Part shown: positions 4,848-9,240 of the stretch, piece after piece
Layout: every line of letters begins with the position of its first letter
How positions within the stretch are numbered: the stretch's first letter is position 1
Source of the DNA: Gammaproteobacteria bacterium
GTDB taxonomy: Bacteria; Pseudomonadota; Gammaproteobacteria; PS1; Pseudothioglobaceae
Length of the DNA: 10,497 bases
Assembly (NCBI GenBank): GCA_024280535.1
Contig: JAJRPY010000173.1
Location: 1-10,497, forward strand
Direction: 5' to 3'
The notes under the pieces: model-generated
Seen by the model: the letters and a program-made list of their open reading frames with translations, nothing else
The model's database searches: none
What the model was told of the DNA's origin: nothing
Translations under genes and position numbers: made by a program

Positions 4848-5732
4848 TTATAATTTTTGATCATATATTTCGACATATGCCGCTTGTCTAAGTTTGTTGA
4901 CCCAGGCATTGAAATAATCATCTTTTTTCTGGCGCACTAGGGCGGCTTCAATGTTTTCGATATGATTATCGACACGGCGTTTTTCAATAATTTTAATCAA
5001 TCTCCAGCTGTTTCCAGCCTTAAATGGGCTGGACACTTCTCCAACTTTTAGCGTATCAAGCACTTGAGTAAAAACTTTAGGCAGTTGTGCGGTTAGCAGC
5101 CAGCCAGATTCGCCACCATTTTGATAAGATTCATCTTGAGAATGTAATTTAGCCAAAGCAGAGAACGATTTCCCCTGATTAATCTGATCGGCAAGATCCG
5201 TTAAAAAGGCTTTAATCAGTGTATCTTGCGATTGCAATAAAGAAGATTGTTCAATGCTGCTGATGGCAATTTGAGCAATGCGAATTTGTTCGCTAATGTC
5301 GGTTTGAGTGCTGGGGTTGTCTTTTAAGGCTTGGTCAATTTCAGCCTGAGTCAAAATCAAGCCCGCCTGATCGATAATAAACGCTTTCAAGCCATTAAAA
5401 ATTAACGTTTTCTTAACATCGGCCAGCACTTGATCAAATTTAGGGCTGGCCTGAAGTTGTGATAAACTTAGGGAATTTTGTTGGGCAATGTAATTTAGCG
5501 CATCATTAATTGCCTGATCTTTGAGTGTTAGCTCTAATTGTTGAACTTGGCGCATTTTTAATATGTCGTCAATTTGACGATTAATCGATGCTAATTTGGC
5601 TGCTTTTGTCTCATTTTTGACACCAATCATATCATAAGTAATTAACTCATCATCAACGATGGCGACAATGCTATTGCTGGCAGAAAATGCGTTTAATGAA
5701 GCAAGCAACAGTAATAAAGGGAGTTTTTTCAT
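4848..5732 (-). CDS. surA: SurA-like periplasmic chaperone, single parvulin domain
   Basis: A 294-residue exported protein. The N-terminus (Met-Lys-Lys, then a Leu run, ending about A18 in AFSA) is a cleavable Sec signal peptide. A SurA-type N-terminal helical domain covers about 20-140, one parvulin-like domain about 148-252 (conserved NGGESGWL at 205-212, SSPFKAGNSWRLIKI at 234-248) and a C-terminal helix follows. SurA guides unfolded outer-membrane proteins, LptD among them, across the periplasm. E. coli SurA has two parvulin domains and about 430 residues, so this form is reduced. The usual His of the first parvulin strand (HIL-type motif) is replaced in RIAQIAIS (151-158), so catalysis is doubtful while chaperone function may remain. 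Position directly downstream of lptD (15-bp gap) supports the name. Confidence 0.88.
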   Translation of the reverse strand: MKKLPLLLLLASLNAFSASNSIVAIVDDELITYDMIGVKNETKAAKLASINRQIDDILKMRQVQQLELTLKDQAINDALNYIAQQNSLSLSQLQASPKFDQVLADVKKTLIFNGLKAFIIDQAGLILTQAEIDQALKDNPSTQTDISEQIRIAQIAISSIEQSSLLQSQDTLIKAFLTDLADQINQGKSFSALAKLHSQDESYQNGGESGWLLTAQLPKVFTQVLDTLKVGEVSSPFKAGNSWRLIKIIEKRRVDNHIENIEAALVRQKKDDYFNAWVNKLRQAAYVEIYDQKL

Positions 5733-5747
5733 AGTCGGATGTCCGTG

Positions 5748-7430
5748 TTATAAATCGTTTAAATTTGCCAAATAATTTGGCACTGCCTCTTCTAGGCGTT
5801 TAGCCAAGTTGGGTGAGGTTGATGCCAGACCTTTAAGCACCAACTCAATACTGCTGACGTCATCATAGTTATTGCTGCTGATGTGCTGTTTAGAATGCGC
5901 TAAACGCACTGCCCAGCAGCAAGATTCATAAGCCAAGCCGGCGATTAGTTTGTTGGTCGTTGAATGGCTGATTGATCGGTTAATGCCAGCAAATATATGT
6001 AGGTTTTGAGTCATTGGATAAGCGCCATATAGTTCGATTGTCTTTGTACCATTATCATTATGATGTGCCAAGGTTAAAAATTGTCTTGAATTAAGCAAAT
6101 AGCTCATGGAACTATCAAGCGTGTCAATTTTGTTGGTTTCAGGGTCGTATTGTAATGAATTATTAACCTTAAAATTATCCAAAGTTATATCAGCAGATAG
6201 GGCAATATCAGAATATCGCCTTTTAGCGCCGTTTGTAGAGATGGCATCTGCATAAAATGCTTGCGCAGATTTTAGGCTTAAGTAGGTTTCGCCAGTTTTT
6301 TCATCAATAAAGTCTGATGCTAGCCCAATTGTTAAATCATTAGCTTTGCCAATTCTATCTATGCCAGTAAATTTTTTCCCAGAAAATAAAGACCCGTAAA
6401 AGTCAACTTTGGCCTGTGAATCAAAATTAACACTGGGATTGGTTTGCTCAGGGGTGTAGTTGTATGCCAATCTTGGGGTGAGTGTTTGGGTTAAATCGAT
6501 GTCAAATAATCGTACCTTTCTTGCTAAAAATAAGTTTGAATCGATGCCAAAACTATAACTGGTTCGGGATTCATTAGCAGCATTGTCTAGTGCATAATGG
6601 GTGGCAGATAGGCTAAATTTGGGCGTTAATGAATAGGCGTTTGTTGTAATGTGGCGAATAAAATCTGCTTGTGTATGAGTGCGAATGCCTGTTGTATTAT
6701 CGTCGGTATTTTTATGGGTAAATTGAGTGCTGATAAACGATAACTTGGTGTGGCGATTGTCTAACCCATCAACCTCTTTTGAAATCGATAATTCTGGCGC
6801 TTTGGTGTAGGTTGCTGTGCCTTGGTTAATTAATTGTTCATTCTCGGCAAAAAATGATATATTTAAATTTTGTTTAGTATCTGTGTAGTTTAAATCAATC
6901 GTTGAGTTGAGTGTTGAATCTGAAGTATTGGTATGGGCTATGTCTTTAAAATAGTCTTTGTCGGAGACGCGATGAGTGGCAATGTTGACACTGGTTTTGT
7001 CGTTAAGCGATAGTTTGACGGTTGAGTTTAATAACCATCTGCTATTGCCGCTGAGTTTGTCTTTGTCTAAATAATGCCCTTCAATCTCAAAACGACCGCC
7101 ATTTGTATACTCATCAGCACTGATTAATTGGCGATATTTGCCCTCAATAACACTGCCACGGCTGGATAGTTGATTAAGACTTAATAATAAATCACGATCG
7201 GCAGCAAGGTTAAAATAATACGGAATCCTGACTTGGTAATGGCTACTTTGATTGGTTTCTGATTCACGATAGCTGCTAAAAGAAGGGGCTAAAAATCCCG
7301 AACCCTTGCCTTCCAGCACCCATTCATAGCGTGGCGTATAAAATATCGGCACGCCCAAAAATTCAATCACCACATCACTGGCAACACCCCGATTGGTATC
7401 TGCGTTTAGCGTAATTTGAGCCGCCTTCAT
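5748..7430 (-). CDS. lptD: LptD, C-terminal beta-barrel segment of an interrupted gene
   Basis: These 560 codons continue the reading frame of the upstream LptD segment directly after its TAA stop, starting at an adjacent ATG. The content is the LptD insertion channel: end of the LptA-like jellyroll (residues 1-30, with GVPIFYTPRYEW), SGFLAPSF (44-51), then the beta-barrel with the diagnostic FSGKKFTGIDRIGKAND (349-365), the CysCys pair at 504-505 and the terminal ELVLKGLAS motif (529-537). On its own it has no signal peptide and could not reach the outer membrane. Expression would need readthrough of the TAA; reinitiation at the ATG would give a cytoplasmic fragment. The ATG context has no good Shine-Dalgarno sequence. 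The frame is open throughout, so decay beyond the stop is not visible. Confidence 0.88.
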   Translation of the reverse strand: MKAAQITLNADTNRGVASDVVIEFLGVPIFYTPRYEWVLEGKGSGFLAPSFSSYRESETNQSSHYQVRIPYYFNLAADRDLLLSLNQLSSRGSVIEGKYRQLISADEYTNGGRFEIEGHYLDKDKLSGNSRWLLNSTVKLSLNDKTSVNIATHRVSDKDYFKDIAHTNTSDSTLNSTIDLNYTDTKQNLNISFFAENEQLINQGTATYTKAPELSISKEVDGLDNRHTKLSFISTQFTHKNTDDNTTGIRTHTQADFIRHITTNAYSLTPKFSLSATHYALDNAANESRTSYSFGIDSNLFLARKVRLFDIDLTQTLTPRLAYNYTPEQTNPSVNFDSQAKVDFYGSLFSGKKFTGIDRIGKANDLTIGLASDFIDEKTGETYLSLKSAQAFYADAISTNGAKRRYSDIALSADITLDNFKVNNSLQYDPETNKIDTLDSSMSYLLNSRQFLTLAHHNDNGTKTIELYGAYPMTQNLHIFAGINRSISHSTTNKLIAGLAYESCCWAVRLAHSKQHISSNNYDDVSSIELVLKGLASTSPNLAKRLEEAVPNYLANLNDL

Positions 7431-7925
7431 TTACCAATCTGTATTGCCTATTGGGCATAATGAATAACTCACCGAGTCGAACACCTGATTAGCCCCAGTA
7501 TGCACAACTTGCCCGGCCTTGCCGTTTATTTTATGCTCAGGGTAATGAAAACTTAGTTGCTGTAATGTCACCTTATTATGATCAGTTTGCCCATTAACCA
7601 AAGCGCTTTCACCCGTTAGCATCAATTCGTTATCCTGATATTTAACATGACCTTTGGCGGTTAAAGTTTTGTGGGTTTTTTGAATTTGAATGTCGTCTGC
7701 TGCCAAAAAATAAGCGCTAGAATTAAGTGAGACATTGCCTGTTAATAAGTAGCGGTCGCTTTTGCTAACCTCGCTATAATCGGCTACTACATCAAGATTT
7801 TCATTAGTAGAAAGGCTTTGTTTGGGAAATAGCAGGCTGGCGTCTTGGCAATTAAAGCGATAGTCTTGAGCGTTGCTGGTAGCTGATACAAGCGCTAATA
7901 AACAAAGGATAATTGATCGTTTCAT
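7431..7925 (-). CDS. lptD: LptD, N-terminal signal peptide and LptA-like segment of an interrupted gene
   Basis: This is the first 164 codons of lptD, whose product receives LPS from LptA and inserts it into the outer leaflet of the outer membrane. MKRSIILCLLALVSATSNA is a Sec signal peptide with likely cleavage after A19. The rest is the LptA-like jellyroll domain (about 40-140), ending YSLCPIGNTDW and then TAA. Cys26 and Cys157 match the two N-terminal cysteines that pair with the C-terminal CysCys in mature LptD. In homologues the chain continues past the Trp into the jellyroll end, exactly as the next ORF does. I use ATG 7925; a TTG at 7931 would add two residues. The break is either a nonsense mutation, a base-call error or a recoded stop; one C-to-T change in CAA would explain it. 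Confidence 0.85.
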   Translation of the reverse strand: MKRSIILCLLALVSATSNAQDYRFNCQDASLLFPKQSLSTNENLDVVADYSEVSKSDRYLLTGNVSLNSSAYFLAADDIQIQKTHKTLTAKGHVKYQDNELMLTGESALVNGQTDHNKVTLQQLSFHYPEHKINGKAGQVVHTGANQVFDSVSYSLCPIGNTDW

Positions 7926-8086: not shown

Positions 8087-8824
8087 CTAATCACCCCAGG
8101 CATTTTCATCACTGCTTTGACCGCGCCAAGGGGTAATCCACATTTGATACAGCGAACTGCTTAGCATAATGGCAGACGCCAAACTATAGCCCAAGCCGCC
8201 AATAATAACCAGCCAAGCAAAATCTGGGTTAAGGCGTGTTAGCCACCAAGCACTCACATCAAGTATTAAAAAAGCAAAGGGGATAAAGATGATTAAGGCT
8301 TTTAATCGTCTGCCAAAACCGAGTGTTAAGGAAAATATCAGCCCCACAAAAAAGAAAATAAAGGCAATGCCAAATAAATGAATATGAGAAATACGAGTTA
8401 AACTGGACGTATCCACTGCGCCATCAGTTGCTGCTAATTTTTTAATGACCTCAAATTGAGTAATATTGGGCAATGCTGGAATGCTGGTGTGGCAAGAAGC
8501 GCAACGCTTTAACACAATTGGCTGTATTTCAGTCGTCCAACGTTGTTGTGTCGCACCATGGGTCACCCAATTAATAATGGCTAATCTTTCCTTAGTCGGC
8601 GCCTTATCTTTCATTGAGCCATTTAATTTATTTTCTAATTTAGAGTTGGAGCGATTGCCATAATAGCTATAGACAATGTCGTCAATGGACAATCCAGTTT
8701 TCCCGTCAGACATACCATGAGTGAGCATAATTTGCGCCCCAGCCATCATTAACCCTACGCCAATAACCAAAATATAGCCTGTAAATAACGCTTTTAACGG
8801 TAATGAAATGGTTGATAAATTCAT
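8087..8824 (-). CDS. Membrane-anchored monoheme c-type cytochrome-like protein
   Basis: A 245-residue protein (from ATG 8824) with one N-terminal membrane helix (about 13-32), an extracytoplasmic domain with a single CASCH heme-binding motif (108-112), and three more membrane helices (about 148-167, 175-191 and 204-224). The segment ISHIHLFGIAFIFFFVGLIF at the start of the second helix has two histidines that could ligate heme or a metal. This suggests a membrane redox protein, but I do not recognise a named family. ATGs at 8842 and 8833 are also in frame. I prefer 8824 because it has GGGAG 11 nt upstream and starts just after the rhodanese stop; 8842 would overlap that gene by 16 bp. It is cotranscribed with the rhodanese, so a role in sulfur-compound electron transfer is plausible inference. 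Confidence 0.8.
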   Translation of the reverse strand: MNLSTISLPLKALFTGYILVIGVGLMMAGAQIMLTHGMSDGKTGLSIDDIVYSYYGNRSNSKLENKLNGSMKDKAPTKERLAIINWVTHGATQQRWTTEIQPIVLKRCASCHTSIPALPNITQFEVIKKLAATDGAVDTSSLTRISHIHLFGIAFIFFFVGLIFSLTLGFGRRLKALIIFIPFAFLILDVSAWWLTRLNPDFAWLVIIGGLGYSLASAIMLSSSLYQMWITPWRGQSSDENAWGD

Positions 8825-8826
8825 TG

Positions 8827-9240
8827 TTAGCATTGCTCCCATGGCAAATCATCATAGCACCAGCCGTTGATGCCACTGCGTTGTTTTAAGGCGTCTAAAT
8901 CACCCTCAAATCCTGATCTGATGTGTGCCACTTGTTTAAATCCCTTTTTTATTAATGCTTTGCCCGCCGCTAGCGAACGACTGCCAGAACGACAAATTAA
9001 TATAATATCAGTCTCCAGCGGATTAAACCTATCCACTAGTAAAGCTGAAACACTGTGGCAAAATCTAGCATTAATATCCCATTCTGGTTCGTCCATCCAA
9101 GGCACCAACAAACTCCCTAGCGCATGCCCAACAAATTTATATTCCGCGCAAGAGCGCACATCTAAAAACAAAATATCCTGATCCTCTTGCATTTTTTTAT
9201 ACGCCTGTTTGGGTGTTAATTCAGTGACTTGTGTCATCAT
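8827..9240 (-). CDS. Rhodanese-like sulfurtransferase with Cys-rich C-terminus
   Basis: A 137-residue single rhodanese domain. ILFLDVRSCAEYKFVGHA (23-40) is the CH2A-type strand-helix, and CRSGSRS carries catalytic Cys83 in a standard six-residue loop. The C-terminal GFEGDLDALKQRSGINGW...LPW segment is common in rhodaneses of sulfur-oxidising and anoxygenic bacteria. There are extra cysteines at 31, 61, 127 and 137, the last being the final residue. No signal peptide, so it is cytoplasmic. The gene begins inside the end of the DUF3579 gene (20-bp overlap) with AGGA upstream: 4 nt from ATG 9240 and 7 nt from the adjacent ATG 9237, so the true start could be 9237. It is followed by the monoheme membrane protein. 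Confidence 0.9.
   Translation of the reverse strand: MMTQVTELTPKQAYKKMQEDQDILFLDVRSCAEYKFVGHALGSLLVPWMDEPEWDINARFCHSVSALLVDRFNPLETDIILICRSGSRSLAAGKALIKKGFKQVAHIRSGFEGDLDALKQRSGINGWCYDDLPWEQC

What the first reader, a model, noticed from the sequence alone, without database searches (positions are those of the whole stretch)
7428..7433. Single in-frame TAA splits an otherwise intact lptD
Seen: minus strand reads ...GAT TGG TAA ATG AAG..., with both flanks in one frame and together forming a complete LptD (164 + 1 + 560 codons). All four cysteines that form the two interdomain disulfides in known LptD are retained: Cys26 and Cys157 before the stop, CysCys after it. No other lesion is visible, so the stop is either very recent, an error, or tolerated by readthrough. 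A CAA-to-TAA change is the simplest origin. As two separate proteins it could not work, since the barrel half lacks a signal peptide. If real and fixed, LPS export to the surface would be lost or down-tuned in this lineage.
Basis: partly seen in the sequence, partly recalled or inferred. Interest (0 to 1): 0.7.

Follow-up and report, generated by a model that had tools for sequence, protein, structure and literature searches.

The report
lptD stop, probably a sequence error
One stop codon cuts an essential outer-membrane gene in two in this draft genome of an uncultured sulphur-oxidising bacterium, but other core genes in the same draft carry similar lone breaks while the sampled parts of sister genomes showed none, so the break is more likely an error in the draft than biology.

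Summary
On the minus strand 7925-7434 (164 codons) and 7430-5751 (560 codons) are one lptD frame, cut by a single TAA at 7433-7431. All 11 other genomes held for the genus have a glutamine codon there and no stop in lptD. The organism is an uncultured relative of Thioglobus; the assembly is a fragmented draft (177 contigs, 83% complete). The stop is not special to lptD: in 171 kb of this assembly's frames that match relatives I found four more lone lesions in conserved genes (TAA in dsrK and hflX, frameshifts in hemA and an FMN-binding-domain gene). The same scan of 428 kb from 11 sisters found none; against draft sisters alone the contrast is weaker. Lone breaks in sulphur-oxidation, tetrapyrrole and LPS-export genes, on separate contigs, with both lptD parts still showing purifying selection, fit base-level errors in a low-quality draft better than real loss. 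The other LPS genes I searched (PF03968, LptF/LptG, LpxC) are open. Reads were not available, so a recent real mutation is not excluded. Loss or down-tuning of LPS export is not supported.

The parts
7434..7925 (-). N-terminal part of lptD (presumed signal peptide by eye, then the presumed LptA-like domain), 164 codons
   Evidence: weak match to NCBIfam PRK03761 LptD positions 15-179; no Pfam match
7431..7433 (-). in-frame TAA; glutamine codon in 16 of 16 relative loci read (11 of 11 sister genomes, plus a Candidatus Ruthturnera record)
5748..7430 (-). C-terminal part of lptD (barrel, Pfam LptD PF04453), 560 codons plus stop; its ATG is an internal methionine codon in the 16 relative loci read, not a newly evolved start
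4848..5732 (-). SurA-like peptidyl-prolyl isomerase gene next downstream, no stop in the matches to relatives

Best explanation
The TAA is most likely a base-level error in a draft metagenome assembly. [quoted passage not shown] Shown: the stop, its absence from relatives, and further lone lesions in unrelated core genes of this assembly. Inferred: that these lesions share a technical cause.
For: Assembly of 177 contigs, 83.16% complete. Five lone lesions (3 TAA, 2 frameshifts) in 171,396 bases of frames matching relatives, against 0 in 427,548 bases from 11 sister genomes. If lesions fell evenly by length, all five falling in this genome has probability 0.0019, or 0.0067 for the four without the lptD stop I was given. 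They hit dsrK, hemA, lptD, hflX and an FMN-binding-domain gene on five contigs, one of 27 kb. dsrK: TAA in 1 of 11 genomes with a match (the twelfth has no match); the codon is GAA in 8 and GAG in 2 of the other 10. hflX: TAA in 1 of 12 full-length matches, CAA in the other 11. Three nonsense changes, with nonsense 4.5% of random substitutions here, imply about 4 substitutions per 10,000 bases, with a wide margin (Poisson 95% for 3 events: 0.6 to 8.8). lptD: pairwise dN/dS with this genome is 0.12-0.20 for the first part (4 of 8 pairs calculable) and 0.09-0.13 for the second (3 of 6), so no long pseudogene history. Published: counts of internal stops and frameshifts rise at low read coverage and mark poor assemblies (PMC11017572, passages); a significant proportion of interrupted genes in the M. 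smegmatis genome were sequencing errors (PMC1852416, abstract).
Against: No reads or second assembly of this species were available, so the base call itself was not tested. The excess rests on five events. Half of the control is one closed genome; against the ten drafts alone (214,621 bases, 0 lesions) the same probabilities are 0.017 and 0.039, and against the three drafts sampled by contig (125,729 bases) 0.064 and 0.11. The other seven drafts enter only through loci fetched around lptD, dsrK and hflX-type matches. The hemA and FMN-binding-domain frameshifts were each seen against one relative only. A lineage with a real high mutation load would look similar, and this genome sits on a longer branch than most sisters in lptD, dsrK and hflX, with lptD dN/dS somewhat above most pairs of relatives.
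Confidence: 0.75

Rival explanations
1. A real, very recent nonsense mutation: a minority variant that the assembler put in the consensus, or a fixed change in a lineage starting genome decay.
For: Several broken genes in this genome and none found in sisters is also what early decay gives. One sister contig has the length and match of a mussel gill symbiont record (G010:C17 and NZ_FQTP01000017.1), so host-bound life occurs in the genus.
Against: Decay is expected to take dispensable genes before hemA, dsrK and lptD (general knowledge); each lesion found is alone in an otherwise conserved gene; the other LPS genes searched are open.
Confidence: 0.18
2. A real stop tolerated by translational readthrough, giving low but sufficient full-length LptD.
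For: All three nonsense lesions found are TAA; readthrough of in-frame stops in bacteria has been argued from sequence (PMC7918605, passages).
Against: TAA ends 102 of 143 genes with a terminal stop found, so it works as a stop. TAA is 49% of one-step nonsense changes at equal rates, so three of three comes about one time in eight. None of the 20 tRNA genes found has a stop anticodon (the genome is incomplete). No sister match shares the stop. The lesions also include two frameshifts. The leaky codon named in the passages of PMC7918605 is TGA.
Confidence: 0.04
3. A split lptD working as two proteins, the second started at the ATG next to the stop.
For: TAA is followed directly by ATG.
Against: That ATG is an internal methionine codon in all 16 relative loci read, so it did not evolve as a start; the second part has no signal peptide by eye, and the barrel must be exported.
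Confidence: 0.01

Closest known systems
LptD (LPS-assembly outer membrane protein; Pfam PF04453)
   Same: Barrel domain match, cysteines in the usual arrangement (two beyond the signal peptide, CysCys near the end), next to a SurA-like gene
   Different: Interrupted by one TAA, in this assembly only among 12 genomes
Spurious pseudogenes of draft assemblies (PMC11017572, passages; PMC1852416, abstract)
   Same: Lone internal stops and frameshifts in conserved genes, in excess over related genomes
   Different: Read coverage of this assembly is unknown here, so the cause is inferred
In-frame stops with suggested readthrough (PMC7918605, passages)
   Same: In-frame stop within an otherwise conserved gene
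   Different: That study used stops shared by two or more species; this one is in a single genome

Membership tests
LptD | Pfam LptD barrel domain above cut-off | tested here: met
   PF04453, 179-180 bits against a cut-off of 22.4
   Cys 26 and 157 of the first part; 504-505 of the second
LptD | N-terminal LptA-like domain (PF03968) | tested here: inconclusive
   no Pfam match in the window's first part; weak in one intact sister and absent in another; NCBIfam LptD models match the part weakly
LptD | NCBIfam LptD equivalog cut-off | tested here: not met
   best 176.8 bits against 683, but an intact sister also fails it (244.9 bits), so the model looks too narrow for this genus
LptD | one continuous reading frame | tested here: not met
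   TAA at 7433-7431 in this assembly
Spurious pseudogene of a draft assembly | excess of lone lesions over close relatives | tested here: met
   5 in 171,396 bases against 0 in 427,548; weaker against drafts alone
Spurious pseudogene of a draft assembly | reads disagree with the consensus, or coverage is low | not testable with these tools
   no reads held
Readthrough / stop reassignment | suppressor tRNA, or the stop shared by relatives | tested here: not met
   none among 20 tRNA genes found in an incomplete genome; stop in 1 of 12 genomes

The most novel reading that the evidence does not exclude
A living sulphur oxidiser in which several core genes (lptD, dsrK, hflX) carry real TAA codons and are still expressed by TAA readthrough, with frameshifts in A-rich stretches rescued by slippage: a lineage with tolerant decoding at the start of genome decay.
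Probability: 0.02. Interest if true: 0.75.

Novelty: not a real feature. Interest (0 to 1): 0.1.

Why it matters
If real, loss of LptD in an LPS-making bacterium would be a striking change of envelope biology. As it stands the case is a caution: a single stop in a draft genome should be weighed against the lesion rate of the same assembly before a loss of function is claimed. Here that check points to the assembly, on five lesions.

Tried and rejected
Flagged sites rejected as lesions after reading the alignments. In this genome: stops upstream of the likely start in rho, a small cytochrome-like frame, a lipoprotein-like frame, recJ and a 326-aa hydrolase-like frame, and a 135-aa frame that lies antisense to an open frame of another gene (tat-like by eye). 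In the control: one 131-aa G009 frame flagged only under the looser rule; in the reference it lies over a longer opposite frame, so I take it as spurious. Weak matches of HflX to other GTPases in G010, G002, G008 and G005 were listed with stops inside; I read them and the stops lie upstream of the start of der- or ychF-like genes (names by eye).

Limits of the lesion counts. The final own sample was 55 loci, 371,801 bases (29% of the assembly), of which 171,396 (46%) matched frames of the relatives held; lesions elsewhere were not seen. The control was run before the last own stretches were added. It is dominated by one closed genome (212,927 of 427,548 bases); G008, G009 and G011 were sampled by contig plus match loci (125,729 bases); the other seven sisters give 88,892 bases, all from match loci of the lptD, dsrK and hflX searches. 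Six public-record loci (25,549 bases, 0 lesions) were left out of the control because three duplicate sister contigs.

Considered and dropped: stop reassignment (TAA ends 102 of 143 genes); a second intact copy in the assembly (one lptD, one dsrK, one full-length hflX match in this genome; hemA was not searched in the whole genome); a missense-excess test for errors (not run, since about 4 per 10,000 would be hidden by real divergence).

Papers. Listings only: 20 of 55 shown; 12 of 19; 12 of 651; none of the 12 mentions Thioglobus; 12 of 127; one search gave no paper. Passages: PMC11017572, PMC7918605. Abstract and outline: PMC1852416. I make no claim that anything is absent from print.

Full report
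What is there. The window is one whole contig (C35, 10,497 bases) of a 1.27-Mb, 177-contig draft genome, 83% complete and 1% contaminated. Six related public records were found; three bear informative names: Candidatus Thioglobus sp., Bathymodiolus heckerae thiotrophic gill symbiont and Candidatus Ruthturnera sp.. I place the organism in the Thioglobus/SUP05 sulphur-oxidiser group (group name recalled). On the minus strand, 7925-7434 and 7430-5751 are one lptD frame with a single TAA between. Downstream lie a SurA-like gene and a SpoU-type rRNA methylase gene, with no stop in their matches to relatives.

The codon in relatives. Of 20 relative loci matched by the second part, 16 span the site and 4 do not reach it (L005, L006, L017, L021). 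In 16 of 16 the codon is CAA (Gln), followed by ATG. They stand for 11 of 11 sister genomes plus the Ca. Ruthturnera record; three are duplicates of sister contigs under public names (judged by equal contig lengths). A search with an intact sister LptD over 12 genomes lists 16 matches: '1 TAA' in this genome, none in the other 15. The ATG after the stop is an old internal codon and not a new start.

Is the gene decaying? Cysteines 26, 157 and the CysCys pair are kept. Nei-Gojobori dN/dS with this genome is 0.12-0.20 for the first part (4 of 8 pairs calculable) and 0.09-0.13 for the second (3 of 6); between relatives it is 0.04-0.14 and 0.04-0.18. dS is large or saturated in many pairs, so these are rough, and the first part is above most relatives. 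They argue against a long-dead gene and do not date the stop.

Is the stop special? I compared frames of relatives with samples of this genome and, the same way, of sisters. First scan, against one closed sister: 152 matched frames and 7 flagged sites here; 44, 18 and 24 matched frames with 0, 1 and 0 flagged in G008, G009 and G011. On reading, those here came down to lptD, dsrK, hflX and hemA. A stricter scan with all references held gave the same four, a frameshift in an FMN-binding-domain gene, and two stops in a spurious antisense frame here, and 0 in each of the 11 sisters. With five more own stretches the only new flag was a pair of stops upstream of the likely start of recJ. So: 5 lesions in 171,396 bases here, 0 in 427,548 in sisters. 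All five falling here by chance has probability 0.0019 against all sisters, 0.017 against the ten drafts, and 0.064 against the three drafts sampled by contig; without the lptD stop the values are 0.0067, 0.039 and 0.11.

The other lesions. dsrK (NCBIfam DsrK): TAA where the other 10 genomes with a match have glutamate (GAA in 8, GAG in 2), flanks 100% identical to the closed sister over 20 residues each side; one genome, 66% complete, has no match. hflX (NCBIfam HflX): TAA where the other 11 genomes have CAA. hemA (NCBIfam hemA) and an FMN-binding-domain gene (Pfam FMN_bind; rnfG-like by recall): frameshifts in or beside A-rich stretches, each seen against a single relative. They lie on contigs C50, C3, C110 and C140. 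What these genes do (sulphur oxidation, ribosome rescue, tetrapyrrole synthesis, electron transfer) is general knowledge.

Rest of the LPS pathway. Two adjacent PF03968 (LptA-type) matches, two LptF/LptG matches and one LpxC match are present with no stops inside. LptE, LptB, MsbA and the remaining lipid A genes were not searched.

Readthrough. TAA ends 102 of 143 genes with a terminal stop found. Twenty tRNA genes were found, none with a stop anticodon; an 83% complete genome may hide others. Three of three nonsense lesions being TAA is expected about one time in eight (0.49 cubed).

Verdict. Three nonsense changes imply about 4 substitutions per 10,000 bases, with a wide margin, a plausible level for a poor draft (my judgement). 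Lone lesions in unrelated core genes of one draft out of 12 genomes are best explained as errors, and published work ties such excess to low coverage (PMC11017572, passages). A real recent mutation cannot be excluded without reads.

Noticed in passing
G000:C50 (L032 around 10239), G000:C3 (L087 around 2240), G000:C110 (L038 around 3530), G000:C140 (L040 around 2155): Lone lesions in dsrK, hflX, hemA and an FMN-binding-domain (rnfG-like) gene of the same draft genome.
   Followed up: yes
L027 3890-3967 (G000:C15): A second tRNA-Glu gene (anticodon TTC) of 78 bases with a longer 5' part, beside another tRNA-Glu; a 94% identical stretch is in the closed sister genome (L054), so it is conserved there.
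   Followed up: partly
window 8087-8842 and 8827-9240, minus strand: A 251-aa frame with a CASCH motif (heme-binding-like pattern, by eye) and no Pfam or NCBIfam match, overlapping a rhodanese-like frame (by eye).
   Followed up: no
L013 and L020 (both G005): One sister draft holds the lptD junction on two contigs that differ slightly, which may mean a strain mixture in that bin.
   Followed up: no
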